Source of the DNA: Rathayibacter oskolensis
GTDB taxonomy: Bacteria; Actinomycetota; Actinomycetes; Actinomycetales; Microbacteriaceae
DNA: 64,000 nt
Direction: 5' to 3'
Assembly (NCBI RefSeq): GCF_900177245.1
Contig: NZ_FXBM01000001.1
Coordinates: 620,001 to 684,000, forward strand
The stretch's first letter is position 1. Each line of letters opens with the position of its first letter. The notes under the pieces are model-generated. The model did not search any database. It was not told the DNA's origin and saw nothing but the letters and a program-made list of their open reading frames with translations. The position numbers were made by a program, and so were the translations under genes. Positions 31,858 through 54,296 of the stretch are shown piece by piece.

Positions 31858-31959
31858 TCGCGGGCCCTGGCGGGGGCATCTGCGGCGTTGTCGTCGGTTG
31901 CCATAGCTCCGCTATGGCGCCCTCCTCCGCCTTGCAGCTACCCCCGCCAGGACCCGCGA
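31858..31959 (+). repeat. Structured intergenic element, copy 1 (after regX3)
   Basis: The outer stem TCGCGGG-c-CCTGGCGGGGG (31858-31876) pairs with CCCCCGCCAGG-a-CCCGCGA (31941-31959): 18 bp with one mismatch. A short stem CTGC/GCAG follows. The conserved core has GGCGTTGTCGTCGG, an inner hairpin GCCATAGC-TCC-GCTATGGC and CCTCCTCCGCCTTGC. The element starts immediately after the regX3 stop in a convergent gap. Copies 2 and 3 are at 36736 and 54201. Confidence 0.8.
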
Positions 31960-31983
31960 TCCGCCGGGTGGGGGGTGGTGGGG

Positions 31984-32114
31984 CCGTCGCTGCGCGACGA
32001 GCTACGCCAGCCGTCGCTGTGCGACGAGCTGCTTTCGGGCCGTCGCTGTGCGACGAGCCACCCCCGGGCCGTCGCTGCGCGACGAGCTACGCCAGCCGTC
32101 GCTGCGCGACGAGC
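31984..32114. repeat. Array of five palindromic 19-bp repeats
   Basis: The 19-mer CCGTCGCTGYGCGACGAGC occurs at 31984, 32011, 32040, 32069 and 32096, separated by 8-10 bp. Each contains the self-complementary CGTCGC-TGY-GCGACG. Two separators are the same (TACGCCAG). It lies between element copy 1 and a REP-like palindrome in the 421-bp gap between regX3 and the LpqE-like gene. The separators are far too short for a CRISPR array. Confidence 0.8.
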
Positions 32115-32158
32115 TGCTCCGGTGGGCGGTGGCTTGACGAGGTGGGGCGCAGCCTGGT

Positions 32159-32193
32159 GGTCGAGTAGCCGCGGGACGCGGCGTGTCGAGACC
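32159..32193. repeat. REP-like palindrome, GGTCGAGTAGCC family
   Basis: 35-bp palindrome starting GGTCGAGTAGCCGCG and ending GCGTGTCGAGACC, closely similar to the copy at 7899-7932. Confidence 0.7.
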
Positions 32194-32236
32194 GACCTCC
32201 CTAGGGGCGGGAGGGGGGCTCCTCCCCGAACGACGG

Positions 32237-32266
32237 AGGGCCGCCCACTCGCGTGGACGGCCCTCG
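32237..32266 (-). terminator. Terminator of the LpqE-like gene
   Basis: GAGGGCCG (32237-32244) pairs with CGGCCCTC (32259-32266), continued by CCAC/GTGG with one unpaired base on each side and a 4-nt loop. It lies 12 bp after the stop on the minus strand. Confidence 0.75.
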
Positions 32267-32278
32267 GACGCGTGGGGG

Positions 32279-32848
32279 CTACTCGCCCGAGGGCTCGATG
32301 GAGTTGCCGGGCTCGGTCGTGGGGGTCGGCAGGGCGGTGTTCGCGGGGTCGGGAGTGGCCGTCTGAGTGGGGGTGGCCGACGGGGCGGGAGTGAGGGTCG
32401 AGTAGGCCTCGAGGGCCGACGTCAGGATCGGCACCAGCAGCTCCTTGCCCTGCTCGGAGCCGTACTGGAAGTAGACGGGGAGGAGGCTGCCCGGCACGGT
32501 GTCGAGATCGGCCATGGTGACCGACTCGTCCTTCTGCGGGCCGATCTCGGTGCTGCCGGGAACGATCGTCGCCTCCGCGTCGGTGCGGCCGGTGCTCGAG
32601 TCGTACTGCACTTCGAGGGTCTGCGTCTCGTCGCCGGAGTTGACGACGGTCACGACGAGAGTCCCCTCCTCACCGTCGTTCGAGACGATGAACGCGTTGC
32701 GGATCGCCAGCTCGCCGATGGTCGCGCCGACGCCGTCGCTGGGGTCGTAGATCTTGCGCGTCGCCTGCGGGGCGACGAGGTTGCAGCCGGCGGTAGCGAG
32801 AGCGACGCCGACCGCGAGAACGACGGATGCAGCGATTCGCGCCTTCAC
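32279..32848 (-). CDS. LpqE-like lipoprotein
   Basis: 189 residues. A lipoprotein signal peptide has core 'VVLAVGVALATAGC' with the lipidated Cys at about residue 22. The mature domain is beta-rich ('IGELAIRNAFIVSNDGEEGTLVVTVVNSGD', in parts), resembling the LpqE/copper-chaperone-like immunoglobulin fold. The C-terminal 40 residues are a Thr/Pro/Ala-rich disordered tail ('TPAPSATPTQTATPDP'). In Mycobacterium lpqE lies beside carD and ispD; here ispDF follows divergently but carD is absent. Function not established. Confidence 0.7.
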   Translation of the reverse strand: MKARIAASVVLAVGVALATAGCNLVAPQATRKIYDPSDGVGATIGELAIRNAFIVSNDGEEGTLVVTVVNSGDETQTLEVQYDSSTGRTDAEATIVPGSTEIGPQKDESVTMADLDTVPGSLLPVYFQYGSEQGKELLVPILTSALEAYSTLTPAPSATPTQTATPDPANTALPTPTTEPGNSIEPSGE

Positions 32849-33011
32849 AGATACCTCCAGGTCATCGGCCCTGCTCGCCCCGGACAGGGCGGATCCACGG
32901 TGCTGGAGCCGGACACCAGATTAGCGTAGCGAGGTCGTGGGCGACGCCCGTCCGAGGGTGCCCCGCGCGAGGGCGCGTGCTACTCTGACCGCCGCTGAGA
33001 GGACGTCACGC

Positions 33012-34220
33012 ATGCAGGTCGAGTCCGGCGGGACGCCGGGAACGCCGAGCGCCGCCGTCGTCATCGTGGCCGCCGGCAGCGGCACCCGCCTCGGCCGGGA
33101 GCGGCCGAAGGCCTACGTCGACTGCGCCGGCGTCACCATCCTCGAGCGCAGCCTGCGCACGGTGCTGACGCTGCCGGAGCCCGTGCAGATCGTCGTCGTC
33201 GCACCGCTCGACCTGGTCGACGAGACGATCCGGCTGTGCGAGTCCGCCGCTGGCCGCGCCGCGTCGTCGGTCGCCGTCACGGCCGGAGGCCCGACCAGGC
33301 AGGAGTCGGTCGCGCAGGGGCTCGCGCTGCTCCTCCCGTCGGTCGAGACCGTTCTCGTGCACGACGCCGCCCGCGCGCTCACCCCGGTCGGCCAGTTCGA
33401 GCGGGTCGTCGCCGCGGTCCGCTCGACCGGAGGAGGGGTCATCCCCGGCCTGCCCGTCACCGACACCATCAAGCGCGTCGCTGCCGACGGGGCGATCCTC
33501 GACACGGTCGACCGCTCCGAGCTCGCCGCCGTGCAGACCCCGCAGGGGTTCCCGCGGCACCTGCTCGACGAGGCCTACGCCGCGGCGCAGGAGGAGTACA
33601 CCGACGACGCCGCGCTGCTCGCCTCCCACGGGCACCGATCGGTCGTCGTGGCCGGCGACGCGCTCGCCTTCAAGATCACCACTCCCTGGGATCTCGCCCG
33701 CGCCGAGCAGCTGCTCGCGCCCGTCGTCCCGTCGGCACCGCCGAGGGTCGGCGTCGGGACCGACGTGCACGCCTTCGACGACGAGTCGCCGCTCTGGCTC
33801 GCCGGGCTGCACTGGCCGGGAGAGCGCGGGCTGTCGGGTCACAGCGATGGCGACCCGGTCGCCCACGCGATCTGCGACGCCCTGCTCGCCGCCGCGGGGC
33901 TCGGCGACATCGGCTCCCGATTCGGGACGGCCGACCCCCGCTTCCGTGACGCTCACGGTGAGGTGTTCCTCGCAGCGACACGGGAGCTCGTCGAGGCCGC
34001 CGGCTTCACGATCGGCAACGTGTCGGTGCAGCTGATCGGCAACCGACCGAAGTTCTCGCCCCGACGCAGCGAGGCGCAGCAGCTGCTCTCCGAGCTGCTC
34101 GGCGCGCCGGTCAGCGTCGCCGCGACGACCTCCGACTCCCTCGGTTTCACCGGGCGGGGAGAGGGAGTCACGGCGATCGCCACGGCGCTCGTCCTCCCCA
34201 CACCCGCGACTCGCGCCTGA
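33012..34220 (+). CDS. ispDF: Bifunctional MEP-pathway enzyme IspDF
   Basis: 402 residues joining two enzymes of isoprenoid synthesis. Residues 10-235 are IspD, the CDP-ME cytidylyltransferase ('[20 protein letters not shown]', '[10 protein letters not shown]', 'VQTPQGF'). Residues about 243-402 are IspF, the 2-C-methyl-erythritol-2,4-cyclodiphosphate synthase ('GVGTDVHAF' with metal ligands, '[18 protein letters not shown]', '[13 protein letters not shown]'). In most actinobacteria these are separate genes; the fusion skips the IspE step in between. The ATG is at 33012 and there is a -10-like TACTCT near 32980, giving a short leader. Confidence 0.94.
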
Positions 34221-34277
34221 TCCACCGGTCGGCACTCCCGCCGGGCTGCGAGCGGCGCGCCCGGTAAACTCCCCACC

Positions 34278-35726
34278 GTGACTCTGCGACTGCATGACTC
34301 GAAGGCCCAGGCCCTCGTCGATTTCGTCCCCCTCCGCGAGAACGAGGTCGGGATGTACGTCTGCGGACCCACGGTGCAGTCCTCGCCGCACATCGGGCAC
34401 CTCCGATCGGCGCTCGTCTACGACCAGCTGCGCCGCTGGCTGCGCTACCGCGGCTTTGCGGTCACCCTCGTGCGCAACGTCACCGACATCGACGACAAGA
34501 TCCTCGCGATCGCCGAGGAGGCGCGCCTCGCGTCGGCCGACGGCGTCGCCGCGGAGCAGTGGTGGGCCCTGGCCTACCGCGTCGAGCTCGAGTTCACGGC
34601 GGCGTACACGGCGCTCGGCATCCTCCCGCCGACCTACGAGCCGCGGGCGACGGCCAGCATCGCCGAGATGATCGCCCTCGTGCAGCGTCTCGTCGAGCTC
34701 GGGCACGCCTACCCCGCCCCCGACGACTCCGGCGACGTCTACTTCGACACGCGCTCGTGGCCCGACTACGGCTCGCTCACCCACCAGCGCCTCGAGAGCA
34801 TGGAGGCGGCGACCGACGCCGACCCGCGAGGCAAGCGCGACCCGCACGACTTCGCCCTGTGGAAGGGCATGAAGCCCGGCGAACCCGACTCGGCCTCGTG
34901 GGCCTCGCCGTGGGGTCGCGGGCGCCCGGGCTGGCACATCGAGTGCTCGGCGATGTCGACCAAGTACCTCGGCACGCAGTTCGACATCCACGGAGGCGGC
35001 CTCGACCTGCGCTTCCCGCACCACGAGAACGAGCTCGCGCAGTCGACCGCGGCCGGACACGCCTTCGCGAGCTACTGGCTCCACAACGGACTCGTCTCGG
35101 TGACCGGGCAGAAGATGAGCAAGTCGCTCGGCAACTCGGTGTTCGCCGCCGAGCTCCTCGACCAGGCCCGACCCCTCGTCGTGCGCTACTACCTCGGCTC
35201 GGCCCACTACCGTTCCACGCTCGAGTTCCACGACGGTGCGCTCGAGGAGGCCGAGGCCGCGCTGGAGCGGATCGAGGGCTTCCTCGACCGCTCGCGCCGG
35301 CGTCTCGAGGGCACCCGCTTCGCCTCCCTGGGCTCGCCCCTCGTGCCGGACGAGTTCGCCGAGGCGATGGACGACGACCTCTCCGTCCCGCAGGCCATCG
35401 GAGTCCTGCACGAGACGGTGCGAGCGGGCAACGCCGCCCTCGACGCCGAGGATCTGGGCACGGTGTCCGCGCTCCGCACGCAGGTGCTGGCGATGGCCGC
35501 CGTGCTCGGCATCGACCCCGAAGCGCCCGAGTGGGCGCGCTCGGACGACGAACCCTCCTACCGGGCGCTCAGCGTCCTGGTCGACCGCCTGGTCGCCGAG
35601 CGCCAGACCGCGCGCGAGCAGCGCGACTGGGCTGCAGCCGACCGCATCCGAACCGATCTCGCCGCGGCGGGAATCACGATCGAAGACACCCAGACGGGTG
35701 CGCATTGGAGTCTCGATGGCGAATAA
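34278..35726 (+). CDS. cysS: Cysteinyl-tRNA synthetase
   Basis: 482 residues, class I synthetase. HIGH is at residues 38-41, KMSKS at 279-283, zinc ligand Cys29 in 'YVCGPTVQ', and the zinc-site motif '[14 protein letters not shown]' is present. The C-terminal helical domain is normal. The start is GTG 34278, preceded by TAAACT (34265-34270) with a 7-nt gap, hence leaderless. Its end overlaps rlmB by 11 nt. The ispDF-cysS-rlmB order is conserved in actinobacteria. Confidence 0.96.
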
Positions 35727-36735
35727 GGCTGACCGCCCAGGAGCGGTCCGGAAGAAGAGCAGGGGCAAGGCCGTCGGATCCGGCGGACAGGGTCGGCAGG
35801 CCCTCGAGGGCAAGAAGCCCACGCCGAAGGCCGAGGACCGCCCCTACCACCCCGCGGGCAAGGCGAAGGCGGCGCGCGAGCGCTTCGTCGCGGCCGGCGG
35901 CAAGGGGCGGCCGGGCAGCACGCTGTCGTCGGCCGCCCGTGGGCAGGGCCGGTCGCCCGGCCCCCGCAAGCCCAAGACGGGCGACGAGTCCGAGATGGTG
36001 ACGGGTCGCAACTCGGTGCTCGAGGCGCTCCGCGCGAAGATCCCCGCGACGACGCTCTACCTGGCGACCCGCATCGAGATGGACGACCGCGTGAAGGAGG
36101 CGCTCAAGCTCGCCACCGCGCGCGGCCTCCCCGTCCTCGAGGTGATGCGTCCCGAGCTCGACCGGCTCGCCGGGCCCGACTCGGTCCACCAGGGCCTGGT
36201 GCTGAAGGTGCCGCCGTACGAGTACGCCCACCCGAGCGATCTGCTCGAGCGGAGCGTCTCGAAGGGTGTGCTGCCGCTGCTGGTCGCACTCGACGGCATC
36301 ACCGACCCCCGCAACCTCGGCGCGATCATCCGCTCCGTCGCCGCGTTCGGCGGGCAGGGCGTCATCGTGCCGCAGCGTCGATCCGTCGGTCTGAACTCGG
36401 CGGCCTGGAAGACCTCGGCCGGTGCGGCCGCACGCGTCCCGGTAGCGATGGCCGCGAACCTCACCCAGATGGTGAAGGACTACAAGCGCGAGGGCGTCTT
36501 CGTGATCGGGCTCGACGGCGACGGCGACACGCCGCTGCCGGGTCTCGAGCTCGCCGATCGCCCGCTGCTCGTGATCGTCGGGAGCGAGGGCAAGGGCCTC
36601 TCGCGTCTCGTCACCGAGCAGTGCGACGCGGTCGTCTCGATCCCGATCAGCTCGGCGGCGGAGTCGCTGAACGCCGGCATCGCCGCGTCGGTCGCGCTCT
36701 ACGAGATCTCGAAGCTCCGAGCCGCCTCGGAGTAG
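35716..36735 (+). CDS. rlmB: 23S rRNA 2'-O-ribose methyltransferase, RlmB/TrmH type
   Basis: 339 residues. An N-terminal Lys/Gly/Arg-rich unstructured extension (residues 1-90) precedes the substrate-binding domain ('[24 protein letters not shown]' in parts) and the SpoU catalytic domain with motif 1 '[20 protein letters not shown]', motif 2 '[14 protein letters not shown]' and motif 3 '[24 protein letters not shown]' (in parts). The RlmB target is G2251 of 23S rRNA (E. coli numbering). The long basic tail is typical of actinobacterial members. Coupled to cysS; structured element copy 2 starts directly after the stop. Confidence 0.92.
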
Positions 36736-36835
36736 CGAGGCACCCGGCACGATGATCCGCGGCGTTGTCGTCGGTCGCGATACCTCCGGTATCGCTCCCT
36801 CCTCCGCCTTGCGGCTCACCGCACCGGGCACCTCG
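36736..36835 (+). repeat. Structured intergenic element, copy 2 (after rlmB)
   Basis: The outer stem CGAGG-ca-CCCGG (36736-36747) pairs with CCGGG-ca-CCTCG (36824-36835). The next stem CCGC/GCGG replaces CTGC/GCAG of copy 1. Core GGCGTTGTCGTCGG is identical, and the hairpin is GCGATACC-TCC-GGTATCGC followed by CCTCCTCCGCCTTGC. Starts at the base after the rlmB stop, in a convergent gap with the DUF4032 gene. Confidence 0.8.
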
Positions 36836-36892
36836 CGATGAACGTGGGGCTCGTGGGGTCAGGAGTACCCGCGAGCCCCGGCAATAAGAGGG

Positions 36893-38209
36893 TCAGACGT
36901 TCTTCGTCCAGTCGACGTCGGCGTCCTCGTCGGTCAGCTCGGCGTCGCCCGAGTCGTCGATCACGAGGTTGGGCAGCGTGAGCGCCTCGGTCGGCGGGGC
37001 GATGATCGTCGCCTCGTCGCGGCGGTGGCGGAGGATGTCGTTCACGTAGGCGGTGACGGCCTCGGCGAGCGGGACGTCCCGCGCCTGCTGCTGCGACATG
37101 AACCAGCGGTGCTCGAGCAGCTGGTGGAACATCTCGGCCGGCTCGAGGCGCCCCTTGAGGTCGCGCGGGATCGACCGGATGACGGGCTCGAAGACCTGGG
37201 CGAGCCATTCGTGCGCGACCATCTCCTCGTCGAGGCCCTGCTTGTCGTAGGTCGCCGTGTACGAGTCGAGGTCGTTGAGGAGTCTCCGCGCCTGGTTCTC
37301 CTGCGCGTCCAGCCCGGTCAGGCGCAGCAGCCGACGCTGGTGGTGGCCCGCGTCGACGACCTTCGGCTGGATCCGAACCGTGGATCCGGCCTCGTCGGTC
37401 TTGATCGCCAGCTCCTCGATGTCGAAGCCGAGCTCGTTCAGCCTGTTCACCCGGTCGTTGATGCGCCAGCGCTCCGAGGTGGCGAACGACTCGACGCCGG
37501 TCAGTTCCTTCCAGAGGCTGCGGTAGGCGGCGACGATGCCGTCCGACACGGTGATCGGGTCGAGGTCGTCGTCGACGCGGCCGCCGGCCTCGAGGTCGAG
37601 GAGCTCCCCGGCGATGTTCACCCGAGCGATCTCGAGGTCGTTCTCGCGCTGGCCGTTCGACAGCCCACCGGTGTAGAGCTGCCCGGTCTCGGCGTCGACC
37701 AGGTAGGCGGCGAAGGCTCCGGCGTCGCGGCGGAACAGGGTGTTCGAGAGCGAGACGTCGCCCCAGAAGAACCCGATCACGTGGAGGCGGACGAGCAGGA
37801 GTGCGAGCGCGTCGACGAGCCGCGTCGCGGTGTCGGGTCGCAGCGTCTGCGAGAAGAGCGCACGGTAGGGGAGGGAGAACTTGAGGTGCCGCGTCACGAG
37901 CACCGCGGGCAGTTCGCCCCCCTCGTCGTCGGTGCGATTGGTGATGACCGCGCCGGGCACGACGCAGGGGACGTCGAGGCGCTGCAGGGTCTTCAGCATC
38001 TCGTACTCGCGGCGGGCCATCTCGGCGGTCGTCTCCTTCACGGCGACGACGTGGCCCGAGAGGTGGGCGAAGCGGACGGTGTGCCGCGAGATGCCCTTGG
38101 GCAGTGCCGCGATGTACTCGTCGGGCCAGTCGTTCAGCCGCAGAGTCCACGGCAGATCGAGGAGAGCGGGATCGACCGTGGCCGAGGTGATGTTCAGAGA
38201 GCCGGACAT
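36893..38209 (-). CDS. DUF4032 protein with kinase-like N-terminal domain
   Basis: 438 residues. The N-terminal two-thirds look like a lipopolysaccharide-kinase/protein-kinase fold: 'HVVAVKETTAEMARREYEML' holds a candidate ATP-binding Lys, 'LHVIGFFWGDVSLSNTLFR' resembles the catalytic loop HxxGxxxGDxxxxN, and 'AYLVDAETGQL' the metal-binding DxE. DUF4032 follows ('LHVGRRVDDDLDP' region to 'EWLAQVFEPVIRSIP'). Substrate unknown. The C-terminus is acidic. Its transcription converges on rlmB and element copy 2. Confidence 0.85.
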   Translation of the reverse strand: MSGSLNITSATVDPALLDLPWTLRLNDWPDEYIAALPKGISRHTVRFAHLSGHVVAVKETTAEMARREYEMLKTLQRLDVPCVVPGAVITNRTDDEGGELPAVLVTRHLKFSLPYRALFSQTLRPDTATRLVDALALLLVRLHVIGFFWGDVSLSNTLFRRDAGAFAAYLVDAETGQLYTGGLSNGQRENDLEIARVNIAGELLDLEAGGRVDDDLDPITVSDGIVAAYRSLWKELTGVESFATSERWRINDRVNRLNELGFDIEELAIKTDEAGSTVRIQPKVVDAGHHQRRLLRLTGLDAQENQARRLLNDLDSYTATYDKQGLDEEMVAHEWLAQVFEPVIRSIPRDLKGRLEPAEMFHQLLEHRWFMSQQQARDVPLAEAVTAYVNDILRHRRDEATIIAPPTEALTLPNLVIDDSGDAELTDEDADVDWTKNV

Positions 38210-38248
38210 GCTGCGCCGTTCGTGTCGTGAGTCGGACGGTGTGGAGAC

Positions 38249-38298
38249 CGAACGAACGCTGCCGCCGTCCCGGAGGAGACGGCGGCAGCGTTCGTTCG
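38249..38298 (-). terminator. Terminator of the MsiK-type gene
   Basis: A perfect 21-bp stem between 38249-38269 and 38278-38298 with an 8-nt loop, 11 bp after the stop on the minus strand. It is the strongest hairpin in this part of the window and lies between two genes read in the same direction. Confidence 0.85.
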
Positions 38299-38309
38299 CG
38301 TTCGAGGGA

Positions 38310-39386
38310 TCAGGAGAGGCGCAGACCCGACTCGCCGTCGAAGATGTGCACGCGGTGGTTCGCGGTCACGTAGACGCGGTCGCCCGCGGTCGGGTGGACG
38401 CGGCCGTCGACGCGCGCGACGATGTCGGTGCGGCGACCCTCGACCTCGGTGTGGCCGTAGAGGTAGCCGTCCGAGCCGAGCTCCTCGATCAGGTCGACCT
38501 CGATGGGCAGGCCGCCGGGCTGGGTCGAGACGGTGACGTCCTCGGGGCGCACGCCGAGCGTGACGACCTTCTGGGTCGTCTTCGCGAGCGCCTCGCGGGC
38601 GATCGGGAGGACGGTGTCGCCGAACTTGACGCCGCCGTCGGTGACGTCCGCGTGGAACAGGTTCATCGCGGGCGAGCCGATGAAGCCGGCAACGAAGACG
38701 TTGGTCGGGTTCTCGTACAGGTCGCGCGGCGTGCCGACCTGCTGCAGGAGGCCGTCCTTGAGGACCGCGATGCGGTCGCCCATGGTGAGCGCCTCGGTCT
38801 GGTCGTGGGTGACGTAGACCGTGGTGATGCCGAGGCGACGCTGGAGCGTGCCGATCTGCGTGCGGGTCGAGACGCGGAGCTTCGCGTCGAGGTTCGACAG
38901 CGGCTCGTCCATGAGGAACACCTGGGGCTTGCGGACGATCGCACGTCCCATCGCGACGCGCTGACGCTGACCACCCGAGAGGGCCTTCGGCTTGCGGTTG
39001 AGGTAGGGCTCGAGGTCGAGCATCTTCGCGGCCTCGAGGACCCGCGCTGCGCGCTCGTCCTTGTTGATGCCGGCGATCTTGAGCGCGAAGCCCATGTTCT
39101 CAGCGACCGACATGTGCGGGTAGAGCGCGTAGTTCTGGAACACCATCGCGATGTCGCGGTCCTTCGGCGGAACGTCCGTGACGTTGCGGTCGCCGATCAG
39201 GATGCGGCCCTCGTTGACCTCTTCGAGGCCGGCGAGCATGCGGAGGGAGGTGGACTTGCCGCAACCGGAGGGGCCGACGAGGACGAGGAACTCGCCGTCT
39301 CCGACCTCGAGGTTGAGCTTGTCGACCGAGGCACGCGTGGCCCCGGGGTAGACGCGGGACGCGTGGTCATAGGTTACGGACGCCAT
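38310..39386 (-). CDS. msiK: Multiple-sugar ABC transporter ATPase (MsiK/UgpC type)
   Basis: 358 residues. Walker A GPSGCGKS (38-45), Q-loop 'AMVFQNYALYPHMSVAENMGFAL' (in parts), signature 'LSGGQRQRVAMGRAIVRKPQVFLMDEPLSNLDAKLR' (in parts), H-loop 'VYVTHDQTEALTMGDRIAVL', and the C-terminal TOBE/OB regulatory domain ('VTLGVRPEDVTVS'). No permease or binding-protein genes are adjacent, which fits MsiK, a shared ATPase serving many sugar importers in actinobacteria. AAGGAG lies 8 nt before ATG 39386. Monocistronic. Confidence 0.92.
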   Translation of the reverse strand: MASVTYDHASRVYPGATRASVDKLNLEVGDGEFLVLVGPSGCGKSTSLRMLAGLEEVNEGRILIGDRNVTDVPPKDRDIAMVFQNYALYPHMSVAENMGFALKIAGINKDERAARVLEAAKMLDLEPYLNRKPKALSGGQRQRVAMGRAIVRKPQVFLMDEPLSNLDAKLRVSTRTQIGTLQRRLGITTVYVTHDQTEALTMGDRIAVLKDGLLQQVGTPRDLYENPTNVFVAGFIGSPAMNLFHADVTDGGVKFGDTVLPIAREALAKTTQKVVTLGVRPEDVTVSTQPGGLPIEVDLIEELGSDGYLYGHTEVEGRRTDIVARVDGRVHPTAGDRVYVTANHRVHIFDGESGLRLS

Positions 39387-39402
39387 TGTTCTTGCTCCTT
39401 CA

Positions 39403-39420
39403 CCGGCAGGTACGTGCCGG
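39403..39420 (-). promoter_or_regulatory. Leader hairpin upstream of msiK
   Basis: CCGGCA-N6-TGCCGG, a 6-bp stem immediately before the Shine-Dalgarno of the MsiK-type gene, inside a non-coding leader. A cis-regulatory 'msiK' RNA motif has been described in actinobacteria; whether this is a member cannot be told by eye. Confidence 0.35.
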
Positions 39421-39654
39421 ACGATCCGAGTGAATGGAAGTGATGGTCGATGCCGCGTGGGCGACGGCGACCAACCGTCACAGTATGCCACGTGCAACGG
39501 ATCGCGTCAGCGGAAGCCTCCGGGAGCCGGGCGAGAGCTGGCGGGGCAGTGCCGCTGGACGCCCGCCGTTTGGAGGATTCCCAGGGCTCGCGCGTAGGAT
39601 TCCGCGAGTCGCGCCCGGCGACGATCGCCCCCTCTCACTCGGAGTGTCCTTGTC

Positions 39655-40557
39655 ATGACCAACGGCGGAGCCAACGACCGTCTCTCGAAGAACCAGCGTC
39701 GAGAGGCTGCGAGGGAGAAGGCCCGACGGCTCCGTGAGCAGCAGAAGCGCCGCGACCGCGTGAGCAGGATCGCCCTGCAGGGTGGTCTTGCCGTCGTGGT
39801 CATCGCGATCGTGGCGGTCGTCGTCTTCGCGGTCACCTCGAGCATCCGCCCAGCGGGCCCCGGGCCGGCCAACATGGCGAGCGACGGCATCGTGATCGGC
39901 GAGGGCATGGTCGCCCAGACCTCCGACGCGATCCCCGCAGAGGGCACCCCGAGCCCGAGCGCGCTCGACACCTCGACCGGGACCGTCGACATCCGCGTCT
40001 ACCTCGACTACCTCTGCCCCTACTGCGGGCAGTTCGAGGCGACGAACGGCGAGCAGATCGAGGAGTGGGTGTCCAGCGGTGCGGCCACCGTCGAGATCCA
40101 CCCGATCGCGATCCTGACGACGCGGTCGAACGGCACCAAGTACTCCGAGCGCGCCGCCAACGCCGCGGCCTGCGTCGCGAACACGGCTCCCGACTCCTTC
40201 TTCGACTTCAACGCCCTGCTCTTCGCCAACCAGCCGGAGGAGGGGACGGACGGTCTCTCGGACGCCGAGCTGAAGGACTACGTCTCGCAGGCCGGGGTCG
40301 AGGACACCGCTGCGATCGACACCTGCATCGACGACCAGTCGTTCGTGAGCTGGGTGCGCGCCGCGACGGAGCGGGCGACCGCCGGCCCCCTGCCGGGCAC
40401 CGACGTCGAGGCCGTCTCGGGCACCCCGACGGTCCTCGTGAACGGCGAGGCCTACTCCGGATCGCTGACCGACCCCGACGCCTTCAGCTCGTTCGTGCTC
40501 TCGGCCGCCGCCGTCTCGTACTCCTCGGCCACGCCGTCGGCCACGCCGAGCAGCTGA
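39655..40557 (+). CDS. Membrane-anchored DsbA-like thioredoxin-fold protein
   Basis: 300 residues. A highly basic cytoplasmic N-terminus (1-38, 'RREAAREKARRLREQQKRRDR') is followed by one membrane span ('GGLAVVVIAIVAVVVFAVT', 43-61) and an extracytoplasmic DsbA/DSBA_4 domain with the redox motif CPYC at 121-124 and cis-Pro in 'VSGTPTVLVNG'. It is probably a disulphide oxidoreductase acting on exported proteins. The Ser/Ala/Thr-rich C-terminus is low complexity. It ends 42 bp before the tRNA-Thr gene on the other strand. Confidence 0.88.
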   Translation: MTNGGANDRLSKNQRREAAREKARRLREQQKRRDRVSRIALQGGLAVVVIAIVAVVVFAVTSSIRPAGPGPANMASDGIVIGEGMVAQTSDAIPAEGTPSPSALDTSTGTVDIRVYLDYLCPYCGQFEATNGEQIEEWVSSGAATVEIHPIAILTTRSNGTKYSERAANAAACVANTAPDSFFDFNALLFANQPEEGTDGLSDAELKDYVSQAGVEDTAAIDTCIDDQSFVSWVRAATERATAGPLPGTDVEAVSGTPTVLVNGEAYSGSLTDPDAFSSFVLSAAAVSYSSATPSATPSS

Positions 40558-40598
40558 GCCGCGCGGCGGGGGCTCGCGCTCCGGCCGTGAGGATAGGG

Positions 40599-40671: not shown

Positions 40672-40740
40672 AGGTGCGTCGCCGCACCGGGCCACCCTAT
40701 CGCGGGCGCCGGAGGGTCGACTCCGGCCCGCGAGGTGTGG

Positions 40741-45418: not shown

Positions 45419-45482
45419 TTCCGCGGACCGCCGCGCGGGAGGAGGGCGCCGCGACGGTCGCGCCTCCTCCCGTCCCGGCCGC

Positions 45483-45773: not shown

Positions 45774-45853
45774 TGGAGGGTCCTCTCGCTGAGCTGCGCA
45801 CCGGGCGGCGCGTGCGAGAAACCTAGAACCGACGCGACCCGCGGCGCGGCCCG

Positions 45854-47509: not shown

Positions 47510-47578
47510 GGCGGTGGAACTCCCTCGAGATCGTGCGGGCGGTGACGCCTCCGGGGGAGTGCATCACCGGGCCGGAGG

Positions 47579-48268
47579 TCAGACCTTCGCGACCTTCAGC
47601 ATGTATCCGAATCCTCGCTTGGTCTGGATGAGCGATTCCTCCGAATGCGTGTCGAGCTTACGTCGGAGGTAGGAGATGTAGGACTCGACGATGCCCGCAT
47701 CGCCGTTGAAGTCGTACTCCCAGACGTGGTCGAGGATCTGCGCCTTGCTGAGCACCCGGTTCGGGTTCAGCATCAGGTAGCGCAGCAGCTTGAACTCCGT
47801 CGGGCTCAGCTCGACGGGCTCGTCGCCGACGAGGACCTCGTGCGTGTCCTGGTCCATGGTGAGCTCGCCCGCCCGGATGACCGCGTCCTCCTCGGCGTGC
47901 ATCGTGCGCCGCAGGATCGCCTTGATGCGCGCGACGATCTCGTCGAGGCTGAACGGCTTGGTGACGTAGTCGTCACCGCCGACGGTGAGACCGGTGATCT
48001 TGTCCTCGGTGTCGTCCTTGGCGGTGAGGAACAGGATCGGCGACGTGTAGCCGGCGGAGCGCAGGCGCTTCGTGACGCCGAACCCGTTCATGTCGGGCAG
48101 CATCACGTCGAGGATGATGAGGTCCGGCTCCTCCTCGAGGACTGCGGAGATCGCCTGGGCGCCGTTGCCGACTGCGCGCACGGCGAAGCCGGCGAAGCGG
48201 AGGCTCGTGGTGAGCAGGTCGCGGATGTTGGGTTCGTCGTCGACGATGAGAATGCGGGGTCCGTCCAT
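47579..48268 (-). CDS. OmpR-family response regulator (TcrX-like)
   Basis: 229 residues. Receiver with Asp10/Asp11, phospho-acceptor Asp54 ('LIILDVMLPDMNG') and Lys in 'DDYVTKPFS', then a winged helix ('LSPTEFKLLRYLMLNPNRVLSKAQILDHVWEYDFNGDAGIVESYISYLRRKLD', in parts). Partner of the downstream kinase. The ATG at 48268 is preceded by TACTGT with a 5-nt gap, so it is probably leaderless. Confidence 0.92.
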   Translation of the reverse strand: MDGPRILIVDDEPNIRDLLTTSLRFAGFAVRAVGNGAQAISAVLEEEPDLIILDVMLPDMNGFGVTKRLRSAGYTSPILFLTAKDDTEDKITGLTVGGDDYVTKPFSLDEIVARIKAILRRTMHAEEDAVIRAGELTMDQDTHEVLVGDEPVELSPTEFKLLRYLMLNPNRVLSKAQILDHVWEYDFNGDAGIVESYISYLRRKLDTHSEESLIQTKRGFGYMLKVAKV

Positions 48269-48361
48269 GGGGGACAGTATCTGCGCGTCGACTGTGCGAA
48301 GTCTGGGAGTCGGATGCCCGGTCGCTCGGCGGCGGCGTCGTGGTTCCCGAGAGTGCGGCGC

Positions 48362-48610
48362 CTAGGAGGCTCGGCGTCGTCGGACGCCCACGATCAGCAT
48401 CCCGATCATCATGAGGAACGCGATCGGCAGGCCGACGAGGGGGAGGGCGAAGACGAACTGCCACAGTGCGCCGCCGTACTCGCGGACCCCCAGCATCGGC
48501 GCGATCAGGATGGCGAGGAACGCGATCACCACGACGACGATGATGGCGATGAACATGTAGGCGAGCGTCCGCTCCGCGCGTCCGATGCCCGCCGGCTCCT
48601 GTGGCTTCAC
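48362..48610 (-). CDS. Small two-span membrane protein
   Basis: 82 residues with spans at about 17-40 ('LAYMFIAIIVVVVIAFLAILI') and 50-74 ('WQFVFALPLVGLPIAFLMMI'), ending in a basic tail 'GVRRRRAS'. No domain recognised. The GTG at 48610 is supported by TATCCT 6 nt before it (leaderless). It precedes the two-component genes in the same direction but is separated from them by about 90 bp. Confidence 0.75.
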   Translation of the reverse strand: MKPQEPAGIGRAERTLAYMFIAIIVVVVIAFLAILIAPMLGVREYGGALWQFVFALPLVGLPIAFLMMIGMLIVGVRRRRAS

Positions 48611-48678
48611 GGGACAAGGATAGGGCGGCGCGGTGTCGACTAAACTGATGGTCGCTTCATTTCCAGGAGGGGTTCTGC

Positions 48679-49059
48679 ATGCCTACCGGCAAGGTCAAGT
48701 TCTACGACGAGGAGAAGGGCTTCGGCTTCATCAGCACTGATGACGGCCAGGAGGTCTTCCTGCACGCTTCCGCGCTGCCCTCGGGGACCGCGGTGAAGGC
48801 CGGCACTCGCCTCGAGTTCGGCATCGCCGACGGGAAGCGCGGCGCGCAGGCGCTCTCGGCGCGCGTGCTCGATGCGCCCCCGAGCATGGTCAAGCTCAAC
48901 CGCAAGTCGGCCGACGACATGTCGGTGATCGTCGAGGACACCGTCAAGCTGCTCGACGGCATCGGCACCGGCCTCAAGCGCGGACGGTACCCGGACAAGG
49001 CGCACGGGCGCACGATCGCGGCGCTGCTGCGCCGAGTGGCGGACGAGCTGGATGCCTGA
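48679..49059 (+). CDS. Cold-shock-domain protein with C-terminal extension
   Basis: 126 residues. The first 68 form a cold-shock domain (RNP-1 'KGFGFIST', RNP-2 'VFLHASAL'); residues 70-126 are an extra helical domain ('SMVKLNRKSADDMSVIVEDTVKLLDGIG', in parts; 'HGRTIAALLRRVADEL'), typical of the two-domain actinobacterial form. AGGAGGGG lies before the ATG. Overlaps the DUF3027 gene by 8 nt, an arrangement also found in Mycobacterium. Confidence 0.9.
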   Translation: MPTGKVKFYDEEKGFGFISTDDGQEVFLHASALPSGTAVKAGTRLEFGIADGKRGAQALSARVLDAPPSMVKLNRKSADDMSVIVEDTVKLLDGIGTGLKRGRYPDKAHGRTIAALLRRVADELDA

Positions 49060-49837
49060 GGTCGACGAGACGGCAGGCGGCTCCACGCCGCTCGAGACGG
49101 ACGGTCTGATGATGACGTTCTCGGACCGGAGCGTCGACGTCGCCGCCGCCCCGGCCGAGGGCGACCGCGCCGACGAAACTCCCGAGAACGACCTCCCCGC
49201 GGAGGCGACTCCGACCGCCGGGACGTCCGCGGACGACGGCTCCGCGACAGCAGACGGCGACGCGGTCGCCGATCCGGTCGAGCCCGAACCGGTGTACGAG
49301 GTGGATCCGGTGCTCGGCGGTTCGGTGGAGCGTGCGCGAGCGGCGCTCGCCGAGATCACTCCGGTCGAGACGATCGGCGAGCTGGTCGCCACCCTCGCGC
49401 AGGGCGAACACGTCGTCTCGCTGCAGTTCGCGAACCTGGTGCGGGGCTACCCCGGTTGGCTGTGGACGGCGACGCTGTCGCGCATCGACGAGACCGAGGA
49501 CGTGAACGTGCTCGAGGTCGAGCTCCTGCCCGGCGAGGGCGCCGTGCTCGCGCCGGACTGGGTGCCGTGGTCGGTCCGCCTCGCGGACTACACCTCGGCG
49601 CAGGAGGCAGCGGAGAGCGAGTCGGACGACGAGGACGAGGACGACCTCGTCGACGACGAGTTCGACGAGACGGAGGTCCTGGACGCGGACGTGGAGGACT
49701 CGGACGACGACGACGAGGACGACGACGACTCTGAGGACGACGACTCTGACGACGAGGACTCTGACGACGAGGACTCGGATGACGACGACGACCCCGACGA
49801 CTTCGACCCGTCCGACGAGGACGAGCGCGACCGCTGA
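49052..49837 (+). CDS. DUF3027 protein with long acidic tail
   Basis: 261 residues. The central DUF3027-type domain ('GGSVERARAALAEITPVETIGELV' in parts, 'HVVSLQFANLVRGYPGWLWTATLSRI', 'LLPGEGAVLAPDWVPWSVRL') is followed from about residue 185 by an almost pure Asp/Glu/Ser tail of about 75 residues, encoded by short tandem DNA repeats (GACGAGGACTCTGAC-type units at 49730-49780). The tail length is likely to vary between strains. Coupled to the cold-shock gene, which hints at RNA-related work (inference). Confidence 0.85.
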   Translation: MPEVDETAGGSTPLETDGLMMTFSDRSVDVAAAPAEGDRADETPENDLPAEATPTAGTSADDGSATADGDAVADPVEPEPVYEVDPVLGGSVERARAALAEITPVETIGELVATLAQGEHVVSLQFANLVRGYPGWLWTATLSRIDETEDVNVLEVELLPGEGAVLAPDWVPWSVRLADYTSAQEAAESESDDEDEDDLVDDEFDETEVLDADVEDSDDDDEDDDDSEDDDSDDEDSDDEDSDDDDDPDDFDPSDEDERDR

Positions 49838-49934
49838 CCGCCCCGGTCGGTGACCCGCGGGGCGGTCGGGTGATTGTCGACTCCGACGCCGCCGTCGCGG
49901 ATGCCGACGGAGCGCCGCAGATCGGTGCGTCGCG

Positions 49935-50171
49935 TCAGCGCCGGTTCCGGCTGTAGAACAGGCCGATCGTGCCGAGCACGAAGCCGATCACGACGGTCGA
50001 CAGCACGACCGAGGGGACGGCCGCTCCGACGGCGACGGCGATGAGCACGCCGACCAGCGCGAGTGCCCAGGCGATGCAGCCGACCAGCAGGGCGGTGGCG
50101 TCATCGCTCGGGTAGGGCGGCGGGCTCGGGCGACGCTCATCCGGTCTCAGCCACACCCGCATCCGGCTCAC
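49935..50171 (-). CDS. DUF2530 small membrane protein
   Basis: 78 residues with two spans ('TALLVGCIAWALALVGVLIAVAV', 'VVLSTVVIGFVLGTIGLFYSRNRR' in parts), fitting DUF2530. It lies 4 bp downstream of serC in the same direction, so it is in the serC transcript. Function unknown. Confidence 0.8.
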   Translation of the reverse strand: MSRMRVWLRPDERRPSPPPYPSDDATALLVGCIAWALALVGVLIAVAVGAAVPSVVLSTVVIGFVLGTIGLFYSRNRR

Positions 50172-50175
50172 CCGC

Positions 50176-51297
<1,122 letters not shown>

Positions 51298-51418
51298 TTA
51301 ATACTAGGGTTCCCGGCTCGCCCCGCCTTCGAGTGACGAAGGCCGGAGCGCCGTGCGTGCGCTGATTCAGCGCCACGGCGCCCACTAAGGTTGAGCGCGC
51401 CGAGACGGGAAGGCTGAC

Positions 51419-52111
51419 ATGACGGATCTGATCGACACGACCGAGATGTACCTGCGCACGATCCTCGAGCTCGAGGAGGAGAACATCATCCCCCTCCGCG
51501 CACGCATCTCGGAGCGGCTCAGCCACTCGGGTCCGACCGTCTCGCAGACCGTGGGGCGCATGGAGCGCGACGGTCTCGTCGTCGTCTCGGGCGATCGCCA
51601 CCTCGAGCTCACCACGGACGGTCGCCGCAAGGCGATCCACGTCATGCGGAAGCACCGGCTGGCGGAGCGGCTCCTCCACGACGTCATCAAGCTGGACTGG
51701 GAGTTCGTCCACGAGGAGGCATGCCGCTGGGAGCATGTGATGAGCGAGCAGGTGGAGCGCCGCCTCCTCGAGATGCTCGACCACCCCACGGAGTCGCCGT
51801 ACGGCAACCCGATCCCCGGGCTCGACGAACTCGGCGACTCGCCGGCCTCGCGCTTCGCCGACGGAGTCATCAGCCTTCCGCGCTTCGTCGCACGGTCGGC
51901 GGAGCCTCAGCGCGGCGTCGTCCGCCGCCTCGGCGAGCCGGCGCAGGTCGACCCGGAGCTGCTGCTGCAGCTCAAGCAGGCGGGAGTCGTCCCCGGAGCC
52001 GAGGGCGAGTTCTCCGCGCTCAGCGGGTACGTGCTCGCTCGGATCGACGGCGCCGAGGCGGGCATCGAGCTGCCGAACGAGGTCGCGGCGCACATCTTCG
52101 TCATCGTCTGA
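51419..52111 (+). CDS. ideR: Iron-dependent regulator of the DtxR/IdeR family
   Basis: 230 residues. N-terminal winged helix ('LSHSGPTVSQTVGRMERDGLVVV'), the dimerisation and metal-binding domain, and a C-terminal SH3-like domain. Metal ligands sit at exactly the DtxR positions: Met10, Cys102, Glu105, His106 (primary site) and His79, Glu83, His98 (ancillary site). With Cys102 and the SH3 domain it is the iron-sensing type rather than MntR. It represses siderophore and iron-uptake genes when iron is ample; no such genes are in view. Confidence 0.93.
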   Translation: MTDLIDTTEMYLRTILELEEENIIPLRARISERLSHSGPTVSQTVGRMERDGLVVVSGDRHLELTTDGRRKAIHVMRKHRLAERLLHDVIKLDWEFVHEEACRWEHVMSEQVERRLLEMLDHPTESPYGNPIPGLDELGDSPASRFADGVISLPRFVARSAEPQRGVVRRLGEPAQVDPELLLQLKQAGVVPGAEGEFSALSGYVLARIDGAEAGIELPNEVAAHIFVIV

Positions 52112-52186
52112 CCCAGTCCGCCCGGCGTTCCGAGCGCTTTCGAAGCCGGTTCCACGGCGGACCGCAGGTCGCCGTTCGCCGAGAAG

Positions 52187-52334
52187 GTGACAAAACGGTA
52201 ACGGTCGCTTACGCTCTGGGGAGCCCTCCGGCCGAACCTCGGTCGACGGGCACGGTCTCCGACGCCCCCTCGCCCGTCTCGGAGCCCGTGAACTTCGATG
52301 CTTCGCGCATAAGACGGGACAGCTGCCTGGGCTG
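52187..52334 (+). promoter_or_regulatory. Promoter and structured leader of the NlpC/P60 gene
   Basis: GTGACA (52187-52192), a 17-nt spacer and TACGCT (52210-52215) predict a start near 52222 and a leader of about 113 nt. The leader can form CGGGC/GCCCG extended by CTCCGA/TCGGAG (about 52248-52293). Fragments such as GGGGAGCC, GCCGAACC and GACAGCT recall the c-di-AMP (ydaO-type) riboswitch that often precedes cell-wall hydrolase genes in actinobacteria, but the closing stem is not evident. Confidence 0.4.
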
Positions 52335-53282
52335 ATGGGACGTCGGAGGTTCACCCCCTTGCCCCAGAACGACACCCCCGGTTCCCCCGACCGGTTCCGC
52401 TCCACTCACCCGAGTCGCCGCTCCTCCTCCCTCGAGAACCAGCCCCCCGTCATCCGGGCGCGGATCCACGAGGAGGCGCCGGTCGCCCGTCGGGCCGTGC
52501 CCGTCGCGACCGCTCGTCACGCCGACGTGACCGACTTCGTGCCGTCCCCGATCGGCACTCCGCGCAAGCAGCGCGGACGCACGCTCGGCAAGATCGCGAT
52601 CGTCGGCTTCGCGGGCGCTCTCGTCGCCACGATGGCGCTGCCCGCCTATGCCTTCACGCCCGGCAGCGAGGACGACGGACTCTTCGCCGCCTCGCAGGCC
52701 GACCTCCTCCGGCAGGGCGACGCGCAGAGCGTCGACGTCGCGGGGAGCGTCGTGCTGGCCGCGATCGCCCGCGACGGCTTCTCGGCCGAGGCGGCGCCTC
52801 CGCCGCCCGAGCCGGAGCCCGTGGTCGAGCCGGTCGTCGACACGACAGACGTCGAGGCCGCCCGCGCCGAGACCGCCGAGGAGTTCAACTCCTACGACGG
52901 CGCCTCGGCCAGCGAGCTCGCCGCCTCGGCGCCGACCACCGGCTACAGCCTCTCGGCCGTCTTCGGCACTGCGATGCAGTACCAGGGCGTGCCCTACGTC
53001 TTCGGGGGCGCGGATCCCAGCGGCTTCGACTGCTCCGGCCTGGTGATGTACGTCTTCGCGCAGTACGGCATCTCGATGCCGCACTCGGCCGCGGGACAGG
53101 CGGCCATGGGGACGCGGATCCCGGTCTCGGAGGCGCAGCCCGGCGACCTCGTGATCATGCCGGGACACGACGGCTTCTACGCGGGGAACGGCAACATCCT
53201 GCACGCGCCGTACCCGGGAGCGAGCGTCCGCGTGCAGCCGATCTGGACCCCCGACTACTACATCGTCCGCATCGCCGGCTGA
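52335..53282 (+). CDS. NlpC/P60 cell-wall endopeptidase
   Basis: 315 residues. A long basic cytoplasmic N-terminus (1-83), one hydrophobic segment ('GKIAIVGFAGALVATMALPAYAF', about 84-107, a signal anchor or late signal peptide), a Pro/Glu-rich linker ('PPPPEPEPVVEPVVD') and the C-terminal NlpC/P60 domain. Catalytic Cys233 is in 'GFDCSGLVMYVF', His in 'MPGHDGFYAG', and a polar third residue near 'ILHAPYPG'. It cleaves peptidoglycan stem peptides. A terminator follows 20 bp after the stop. Confidence 0.9.
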   Translation: MGRRRFTPLPQNDTPGSPDRFRSTHPSRRSSSLENQPPVIRARIHEEAPVARRAVPVATARHADVTDFVPSPIGTPRKQRGRTLGKIAIVGFAGALVATMALPAYAFTPGSEDDGLFAASQADLLRQGDAQSVDVAGSVVLAAIARDGFSAEAAPPPPEPEPVVEPVVDTTDVEAARAETAEEFNSYDGASASELAASAPTTGYSLSAVFGTAMQYQGVPYVFGGADPSGFDCSGLVMYVFAQYGISMPHSAAGQAAMGTRIPVSEAQPGDLVIMPGHDGFYAGNGNILHAPYPGASVRVQPIWTPDYYIVRIAG

Positions 53283-53302
53283 TCTTCCGCAGTCGAACGT
53301 CG

Positions 53303-53327
53303 AGCCCGTCCCCATCCGGGACGGGCT
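53303..53327 (+). terminator. Terminator of the NlpC/P60 gene
   Basis: AGCCCGTCCC (53303-53312) pairs perfectly with GGGACGGGCT (53318-53327) across a 5-nt loop. Confidence 0.8.
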
Positions 53328-53409
53328 TGACGCGTCTGCGTCACCGCCTCCGGTGTGAACTGCCGGTAACGAATCCCGGCGAATCGCTGGTGTTCCGGGC
53401 CGGAAGGGT

Positions 53410-53652
53410 TAATGTGATCCCAGTCCGCTCGTGGCGAGCGGACCGGTTCGTCGAGGGACGGAGTGCCGGATGGCCGAGCGGAACGGGCACCACTGCGTGG
53501 GGCTCCGTTCGCGCGTGCGGCGGACCGACTCGATCCGAGCGGGGATCCTCTCCGCGTCGGTGCACTCCTCCGACACGCGGATACGACTCCACGACATCAC
53601 GCGCCTGCGCGCCGAGGACTCGAAGGGCGCCGTCATCATGACGGCGCCCTTC
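53410..53652 (+). ncRNA. Candidate non-coding transcription unit
   Basis: Between the NlpC terminator and the HNH gene lie, in order, a -10-like TAATGT (53410-53415), a perfect hairpin GTCCGCTCG-tgg-CGAGCGGAC (53423-53443), about 170 nt without a convincing reading frame, and a very strong terminator-like palindrome with 15-bp arms at 53622-53652. Promoter-hairpin-terminator spacing fits an sRNA of about 230 nt. The -35 is weak and there is no comparative support. Confidence 0.35.
53622..53652 (+). terminator. Strong hairpin upstream of the HNH gene
   Basis: GAAGGGCGCCGTCAT (53622-53636) is the exact reverse complement of 53638-53652, giving a stem of up to 13-14 bp, followed by TTCG. It would terminate transcription before the HNH gene at 53706. 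Confidence 0.75.
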
Positions 53653-53705
53653 TTCGCGTCCGCGGCCGAGTCTCGTGGCGGCGTGCGACAGCCCGGAGGT
53701 CAGTG

Positions 53706-54200
53706 ATGCGCACTTTGGTTCTCAACGCCGGATACGAGCCGCTCGCGGTCGTGTCGTTCAAGCGGGCGCTCGTCCTGCTGATGACCGAGAAGGCGACCAT
53801 CATCGCGGCCGACGACGAGAATCCGGTGCACGGGGCGACCGGAGACTACGTGCGGCCCTCGGTCATCCTGCTCACGCGCTACGTGCGCATCCCGAACTCG
53901 CGCACCGTGCCGGTGTCGCGGCGCGGCGTGCTCCGGCGGGACAACCACCGCTGCGGCTACTGCGGATCGCACGCGAACACGATCGACCACATCCAGCCCA
54001 AGTCGCGCGGCGGCCGGGACACCTGGGAGAACCTGGTCGCCTGCTGCCACCGCTGCAACAACATCAAGAGCGACCGCACGCCGCTCGAGATGGGCTGGCG
54101 CCTGCGCACCGTGCCGCGCGTGCCGCGCGCCGGCTCCTGGCTGGTCCGCGGGGCGGAGCGCACCCAGCCCGAGTGGGACGACTACCTCGTGGCTGCCTGA
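53706..54200 (+). CDS. HNH endonuclease-family protein
   Basis: 164 residues. The N-terminal part ('MRTLVLNAGYEPLAVVSFKRALVLLMTEKA', in parts) is the conserved lead segment of a widespread bacterial HNH family; the HNH domain is 'LRRDNHRCGYCGSHANTIDHIQPKSRGGRDTWENLVACCHRCNNIKSDRTP' (in parts) with two CxxC zinc pairs and the DH...N...H core. The role is unknown; homologues are chromosomal and stable, not obviously part of a defence system. GGAGG precedes the ATG at 53706. Element copy 3 begins at the base after its stop. Confidence 0.9.
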   Translation: MRTLVLNAGYEPLAVVSFKRALVLLMTEKATIIAADDENPVHGATGDYVRPSVILLTRYVRIPNSRTVPVSRRGVLRRDNHRCGYCGSHANTIDHIQPKSRGGRDTWENLVACCHRCNNIKSDRTPLEMGWRLRTVPRVPRAGSWLVRGAERTQPEWDDYLVAA

Positions 54201-54296
54201 CGCGCCGCGGGCGCTCCTCTCGCGGAGTTGTCGTCGGGCGCGATACCGCCGGTATCGCTTCCTCCTCCGCCTTGCGAGAGAAACGCCCGCGACGCG
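54201..54296 (+). repeat. Structured intergenic element, copy 3 (after HNH gene)
   Basis: The outer stem, with internal loops, pairs CGCG / GCGGGCG / CTCTCGC (54201-54223) with GCGAGAG / CGCCCGC / CGCG (54274-54296). The core is GGAGTTGTCGTCGG, the hairpin GCGATACC-GCC-GGTATCGC, then CCTCCTCCGCCTTGC. It fills nearly the whole convergent gap to the phosphoketolase gene, which stops at 54310. Confidence 0.8.

What the first reader, a model, noticed from the sequence alone, without database searches (positions are those of the whole stretch)
31858..54296. A ~100-bp structured element occurs three times, always directly after a stop codon in a convergent gap
Copies at 31858-31959, 36736-36835 and 54201-54296 share the core (GG[C/A]GTTGTCGTCGG ... 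CCTCCTCCGCCTTGC) and an inner hairpin with compensatory changes (GCCATAGC/GCTATGGC versus GCGATACC/GGTATCGC). The next stem co-varies too (CTGC/GCAG, CCGC/GCGG, TCGC/GCGA), while the outer stem sequence differs in each copy yet still pairs. Each begins at the base after the stop of a plus-strand gene (regX3, rlmB, HNH), facing a minus-strand gene. Covariation plus this fixed placement argues for a selected RNA or DNA structure, perhaps a terminator, 3'-end stabiliser, sRNA precursor or mobile REP-like unit. I do not recognise it as a named family.
Basis: seen in the sequence. Interest (0 to 1): 0.85.

Follow-up and report, generated by a model that had tools for sequence, protein, structure and literature searches.

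The report
Mobile hairpin repeat behind stop codons
The three look-alike hairpins are copies of a small mobile DNA repeat with a strongly conserved inner hairpin, shared by actinobacteria and clostridia, whose copies show signs that one particular strand has to fold.

Summary
In detail: three ~100-bp palindromes start one base after the stops of regX3, rlmB and an HNH gene and covary strongly. They belong to a mobile repeat family, not a local RNA. Outside Rathayibacter 62 of 115 testable copies are MITE-like, bounded by TA, with ends like two IS5-family elements; TA plus the element's first G gives TAG, which explains stop-codon landing. The window's copies (Rathayibacter) lack such ends. At rlmB 7 of 15 Rathayibacter genomes have no copy and 8 have one to three, so it is an insertion. 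Two unusual signals: G-U wobbles lie mostly on the strand antisense to the upstream gene (132 against 11 A-C; 118 against 18 in a set not chosen by exact core), and that strand is the leading-strand template in 50 of 51 copies of four Rathayibacter chromosomes (7 of 10 in a fifth; 57% of genes run with the fork). Two other genomes show this, one Streptomyces does not. Best reading: mobile hairpin with selection for folding of one strand; RNA or single-stranded DNA is undecided. No Rfam match.

The parts
31856..31961 (-). Copy 1, whole hairpin (strand given is the better-folding one). Outer arms 31856-31883 and 31934-31961; core GTTGTCG...CCTTG (as read on plus) 31887-31934
   Evidence: R1 match 31863-31958, 91.6 bits. 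Part of R1's own training set.
36735..36836 (-). Copy 2, whole hairpin; core 36764-36811
   Evidence: R1 match 36740-36835, 94 bits. Part of R1's own training set.
54198..54299 (-). Copy 3, whole hairpin, reaching into the HNH stop codon; core 54227-54274
   Evidence: R1 match 54203-54298, 80.2 bits. Part of R1's own training set.
31180..31857 (+). regX3-like response regulator gene directly before copy 1
Evidence: element present in 10 and absent in 2 of 12 resolved Rathayibacter regX3 sites.
35716..36735 (+). rlmB gene directly before copy 2
53703..54200 (+). HNH gene directly before copy 3

Best explanation
The three copies belong to a superfamily of small non-coding mobile palindromes (MITE-type) built around one conserved hairpin core. 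SHOWN: several copies in all 12 host genomes followed up; presence, absence and tandem duplication at one orthologous site; TA-bounded inverted-repeat ends in about half of the testable copies outside Rathayibacter; covarying stems; wobble pairs mostly on one strand; a replication-oriented placement in Rathayibacter and two other genomes. INFERRED: the long form is moved in trans by IS5-family transposases that insert at YTAR with a 2-bp TA repeat. Because the long form begins with G, insertion into the TA of a stop codon gives TAG, so gene ends are harmless landing sites. The window's copies are a shorter Rathayibacter form without such ends, sitting behind stop codons of genes that mostly run with the fork; how this form moved is not known. 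In both forms the strand containing GGAGGAGG (antisense to the upstream gene in Rathayibacter) has to fold, as RNA or as single-stranded DNA. The orientation bias is most simply explained if copies that put the stronger hairpin on the lagging-strand template are lost.
For: Distribution and copy number. Insertion polymorphism at rlmB: 7 of 15 empty, 8 of 15 with one to three copies. TA-bounded ends in 62 of 115 non-Rathayibacter copies with enough flank, against 1 of 125 with the right flank shuffled. IS5-family genes with like ends at L275 and L260. Stop 56-58 nt from the core in 33 of 122 copies: 23 upstream, 8 downstream, 2 both. Covariation 0.655, 0.469 and 0.776 against shuffled 0.190, 0.158 and 0.201. 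Wobble 132 GU to 11 AC, 85 to 5 in Rathayibacter, 275 to 20 over arms of 61 TA-bounded units, 118 to 18 in 55 copies not chosen by exact core. Fork orientation 50 of 51 in four Rathayibacter chromosomes.
Against: 53 of 115 testable non-Rathayibacter copies fail the TA-end test, and 14 of 125 pass it with AT in place of TA. DUF4096 genes were found in only 5 of 12 hosts, none of them Clostridia or Rathayibacter, and like ends in only 2 of 29 DUF4096 loci scanned. None of 10 Rathayibacter copies has TA ends. Fork orientation fails in Streptomyces CCM_MD2014 (6 of 15 listed) and is weak in G164 (7 of 10), G771 (3 of 5), G951 (1 of 2). Many wobbles and sites are shared by descent, so counts are not independent. 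No transcript of either strand was seen.
Confidence: 0.68

Rival explanations
1. It is a transcription terminator or mRNA 3'-end stabiliser of the upstream gene, acting as a hairpin in the sense RNA.
For: Sits 24-31 nt (core to stop) behind a sense gene in the 10 distinct Rathayibacter copies; a very stable hairpin on either strand.
Against: At rlmB a separate terminator-like hairpin lies further on in empty sites (G168, G162, G163) and in a filled one (G166). No run of T follows the window's hairpins. The sense strand is the weaker folder in 44 of 44 of A2 and 44 of 45 of A3, and wobbles are placed against it.
Confidence: 0.2
2. It is an element that moves or is maintained through single-stranded DNA at the replication fork, like IS200/IS605, REP or integron attC hairpins, by an unidentified enzyme.
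For: One strand folds and is selected; near-uniform fork orientation in Rathayibacter; [quoted passage not shown]
Against: Y1 transposase family PF01797 in only 3 of 12 hosts; no partner gene found; IS608-type elements use the lagging-strand template (PMC6006769, passages), the opposite template from the folding strand here.
Confidence: 0.22
3. The covariation is a by-product of template switching that re-perfects palindromes, without selection on structure.
For: Template switching can make and repair stems in one event (PMC8794818, abstract and passages). Tandem copies and internal deletions show local instability.
Against: It does not by itself give 132 GU to 11 AC on one strand, nor keep the mismatched core boxes in most of 55 copies found without requiring them.
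Confidence: 0.15

Closest known systems
MITEs of IS5-family insertion sequences (NF033580 / DUF4096 type; IS427-like by recall)
   Same: Short, non-coding, inverted-repeat ends beside TA in YTAR; ends resemble those of two IS5-family elements
   Different: Conserved structured core, strand-biased wobbles, presence in two phyla; the window's copies have no such ends
REP elements, GTAG and CGTC super-families (PMC3733652, abstract and passages read)
   Same: Palindromic, multicopy, mostly behind coding regions; CGTC REPs also lack a known transposase
   Different: REPs are 20-40 bp with an end tag; the CGTC families listed have 8-9 bp stems starting with AT and a CCA tail, and were reported from five other phyla
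Integron attC sites (PMC5371416, passages read)
   Same: Imperfect palindrome just behind a stop codon, folding bottom strand mostly on the leading-strand template
   Different: Here the copies sit between resident genes in conserved order (regX3, rlmB), not in a cassette array; no integrase was looked for
BOX, RUP, NEMIS/Correia and similar repeats (recalled, not searched)
   Same: Intergenic repeats that can fold in RNA
   Different: Other hosts, sequences and structures; no comparison was run

Membership tests
IS5-family MITE | Inverted-repeat ends next to a short target repeat | tested here: inconclusive
   62 of 115 testable non-Rathayibacter copies, 0 of 10 Rathayibacter copies including the window's; controls 1 of 125 (shuffled flank) and 14 of 125 (AT for TA)
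IS5-family MITE | Autonomous element with the same ends in the same genome | tested here: inconclusive
   Like ends at L275 (G011) and L260 (G012), 2 of 29 DUF4096 loci; DUF4096 in 5 of 12 hosts
IS5-family MITE | Target duplication shown by an empty site | not tested
   TA repeat is inferred from flanks only; no empty site of the long form was compared
REP (RAYT-borne) | Y1 transposase in the host | tested here: not met
   PF01797 in 3 of 12 hosts
REP, CGTC type | CGTC tag, 8-9 bp stem starting AT, CCA tail | tested here: not met
   Core has CGTC before its apical stem, but no AT start and no CCA tail in the copies; read by eye against PMC3733652
Integron attC | R boxes at the outer ends | tested here: inconclusive
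   None seen by eye; box consensus is recalled and no attC model was run
Integron attC | Integron integrase in the genome | not tested
   No search made
Intrinsic terminator | GC-rich hairpin followed by a run of T | tested here: not met
   No T run after the window's hairpins on either side, by eye
Known Rfam family | Match at gathering score | tested here: not met
   Whole window at gathering level; copies 1 and 2 and ten other loci at E up to 5

The most novel reading that the evidence does not exclude
A hairpin module older than its carriers: one core that must fold as a single strand has been carried between phyla by successive mobile palindromes, and in Rathayibacter it spreads or persists without a DNA transposase, coupled to the replication fork through the folded strand.
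Probability: 0.2. Interest if true: 0.9.

Novelty: new variant of a known kind. Interest (0 to 1): 0.72.

Why it matters
Short bacterial repeats of this sort are usually read as passive DNA moved in trans. Here one inner hairpin stays recognisable in two phyla while the stems around it change, and the sense of the wobble pairs says which strand has to fold. That makes the old question of what MITE and REP hairpins do directly testable. TA + G = TAG gives a simple reason why such elements gather at stop codons, and the orientation to the fork links survival of a repeat to the direction of replication.

Tried and rejected
REP/RAYT mobilisation: PF01797 in 3 of 12 hosts. IS630/Tc1, the other TA-target group: PF13358 in 5 of 12, and among its 9 loci only one weak end match. 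Phages: no exact core in viral contigs, no match of copy 2 in phage records. Plasmids: 57 and 11 records, all Streptomyces. Rfam: none. A first palindrome-extension script was too lenient and its output was dropped. The 'stop near' table is biased by unequal arm lengths and is not used. The idea that the arms are copied from the host gene's own 3' flank: the empty rlmB sites do not contain the arm sequence (by eye). Deamination as the cause of the wobble bias: it should act on the exposed strand, here the other one (inference). Ten literature searches, one with the core letters themselves, listed nothing that I recognised as this element; the library lacks most subscription journals.

The overall confidence of the best explanation was set at 0.68 because of the first of these.

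Weak hits: the counts 9/150, 38/396 and 19/398 include marginal ones; L173 and L174 look like chance. With best E below 1e-6, counted by hand, they are 7/150, 23/396 and 18/398. In 18 stretches of G168 that hold no listed copy plus two IS loci, R1's best match had 24 bits (the two stretches holding copies, L389 and L398, were left out).
Full report
Observation. Each core box has exactly three exact matches in the window. All copies fold better than every shuffle, and the minus strand folds 12 to 21 kcal/mol better than the plus strand with RNA parameters; with DNA parameters the difference is 3 to 7 kcal/mol, same sign.

What else carries it. I aligned 41 of the 119, chosen by hand for variety, with the three window copies (A2, 44 rows). 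Because the pattern demands the core, the core's invariance in A2 is by construction. Model R1 from A2 found 6 to 112 matches in 12 of 12 host genomes followed up. At E up to 0.001 it matched 38 of 396 Actinomycetota, 19 of 398 Bacillota and 9 of 150 genomes of the family of G001, some of them marginal.

A set not chosen by exact core. From the genome searches I aligned the R1 matches of 56 loci (A4; 55 distinct, 49 of them without the exact core). Covariation is as strong: score 0.776 against 0.201 shuffled and 0.073-0.132 slid (the alignment is fitted to the model, so it leans towards the structure). A 5' box C[AG]AGGCG is present in 42 of 55, CAAC in 46 and both in 39. Some members carry an added base pair next to the bulge (GGCGCGAGGAG...CGACGAGCAACGC) and also lie between CTAG-like ends (by eye).

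Anatomy. On the minus strand the core reads CAAGGCGGAGGAGG - apical hairpin - CCGACGACAAC: a short stem with an AA bulge on one side and CAA on the other, then G.A/A.G, one G-C pair, G.A/A.G, two G-C pairs, and a variable apical hairpin. In A3, 45 Rathayibacter matches of which 37 have the exact core, the four mismatch columns are kept in 44, 45, 44 and 45 of 45. In A2, 21 of 28 pairs have double changes, score 0.655 against 0.190 shuffled and 0.081-0.173 slid; on this set the number of such pairs alone is not beyond shuffles (81 of 500 reach it). In A3 it is 20 of 28, 0.469 against 0.158.

One strand must fold. In a DNA palindrome a one-sided transition reads G-U on one strand and A-C on the other. 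On the GGAGGAGG strand there are 132 GU and 11 AC in A2, GU in excess in 43 of 44 rows and equal in one; 85 and 5 in 44 distinct Rathayibacter rows, 38 in excess, none reverse, 6 equal; 118 and 18 in A4, 43 in excess, 2 reverse, 10 equal; and 275 and 20 over the arms of 61 TA-bounded units, 58 in excess and 1 reverse. Many of these wobbles are shared by descent, so the counts are not independent events, but the sense is the same in low-GC and high-GC hosts. Deamination of the strand exposed in transcription or on the lagging-strand template would push the other way (inference), so I read this as selection on the GGAGGAGG strand.

Mobile unit. Many copies run on to ends such as C-TA-GGGCCTCTCGTTTGGATCA ... 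TGATCCAAACGAAAGACCC-TA-G, 56-60 nt from the core. Of 136 distinct copies in L001-L149 and the window, 11 had too little flank. Of the rest, 62 of 115 non-Rathayibacter copies and 0 of 10 Rathayibacter copies pass a TA-end test; 1 of 125 passes with the right flank shuffled and 14 of 125 with AT in place of TA. Outer bases are mostly C before and G after TA, with CTAA, TTAG and TTAA variants, hence YTAR (by eye). Because the element starts with G, TA + G makes TAG, and 33 of 122 copies have a predicted stop 56-58 nt from the core (23 before it, 8 behind it in the other direction, 2 both). In Streptomyces RKAG290 the end motif has 113 matches with up to two mismatches and none for the reversed pattern, and several are core-less short units. 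Y1 and IS630-type transposases did not fit. DUF4096 genes occur in 5 of 12 hosts, and 2 of 29 such loci (L275 in Streptomyces CCM_MD2014, L260 in Actinoallomurus) have TA-bounded ends of the same kind with IS5-family proteins. R1 reports no match in these two loci at E up to 1. For Clostridia and Rathayibacter no partner was found.

The Rathayibacter form. The window's RlmB protein is 96% identical to that of G168 in the genus set of G001, the genome of Rathayibacter sp. VKM Ac-2754, so the window is taken as Rathayibacter. At rlmB the element is absent in G168, G167, G163, G162, G164, G170 and G171, single in G165, G057, G166 and G173, double in G001, G128 and G172, and triple in G169. A further hairpin that looks like the terminator (10-15 bp stem) folds in empty G168, G162 and G163 and in filled G166; in others it was seen by eye or lay beyond the stretch printed. 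At regX3 the element is present in 10 and absent in 2 of 12 resolved genomes; G164 and G173 were not resolved and G172 was not fetched. Arms at regX3 differ between species but keep pairing, for example GGGGGCTGG/CCAGCCCCC, GGGGCCTGG/CCAGGCCCC, GGGCCCTGG/CCAGGACCC. In one search all 10 distinct Rathayibacter copies have a sense gene's stop 24-31 nt before the core, of 10 further copies matched in the 20 stretches, eight do at 24-50 nt, one is the second of a tandem pair (141 nt) and one (L404) follows an antisense gene.

Replication. Taking dnaA as origin and, for circular chromosomes, the opposite point as terminus, the GGAGGAGG strand is the leading-strand template for 17/17 copies on the main contig of G168, 7/7 of G167, 14/14 of G169, 12/13 of G162 and 7/10 of G164, 4/4 on the dnaA contig of G165, 14/16 in G458, 23/28 on the main contig of RKAG290 and 4/5 in G504, but 6/15 listed of 17 in CCM_MD2014, 3/5 in G771 and 1/2 in G951 (counted by hand). 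P against 0.5 is 0.0042 for G458, 0.00091 for RKAG290 and 0.61 for CCM_MD2014. In 20 sampled stretches of G168, 193 of 338 genes called by my own script (57%) run with the fork. With copies within 1 kb merged, G168 has 13 sites, all one way. Sites are shared between species, so the pooled P values overstate the case.

Reading. The simplest account is a mobile palindrome family in which a folded single strand matters, plus loss of copies that put the stronger hairpin on the lagging-strand template. That a folding strand is kept on the leading-strand template has a parallel in sedentary chromosomal integrons, 25 of 30 (PMC5371416, passages). I could not decide between RNA and single-stranded DNA, and I do not know how the short form moved.

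Literature. Seen: abstract and passages of PMC3733652 and PMC8794818; passages of PMC5371416 and PMC6006769. All other titles were seen only in search listings.

Noticed in passing
31984-32113: Five copies of a small palindromic unit CCGTCGCTG[CT]GCGACGAG just beyond copy 1; the same unit appears behind the regX3 element in other Rathayibacter genomes.
   Followed up: partly
39389-39446: Rfam msiK RNA on the minus strand, 57.3 bits, upstream of a gene that looks like an ABC transporter ATPase.
   Followed up: no
L296, L297, L302, L303, L309, L310: A sister core, GGCGCGAGGAG...CGACGAGCAACGC, in other genomes; in L302 and L310 it lies between CTAGTGC-like ends.
   Followed up: partly
L226-L231, L233, L236, L244, L245: Short core-less units with the same ends in Streptomyces RKAG290, which look like internal deletions of the long palindrome.
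   Followed up: partly
L009, L013, L025, L054, L055, L061, L077, L105, L113: One Oscillospiraceae genome (G005) has 89 matches, many nearly identical with TA-bounded CTGCTCTCAAGTAAAA-like ends, as after a recent burst.
   Followed up: no
L206, L207: In G170 and G171 the rlmB 3' end carries an unrelated palindrome beginning GGGGGTTGTCAC.
   Followed up: no
L307 and other matches in G190, G330, G373, G378, G548: Several weak matches lie at contig ends, as if the hairpin were part of a longer repeat that breaks the assembly.
   Followed up: no
L128, L137: In Leucobacter (G002) two copies lie 3.1 kb apart in opposite orientation on one contig; what lies between was not examined.
   Followed up: no
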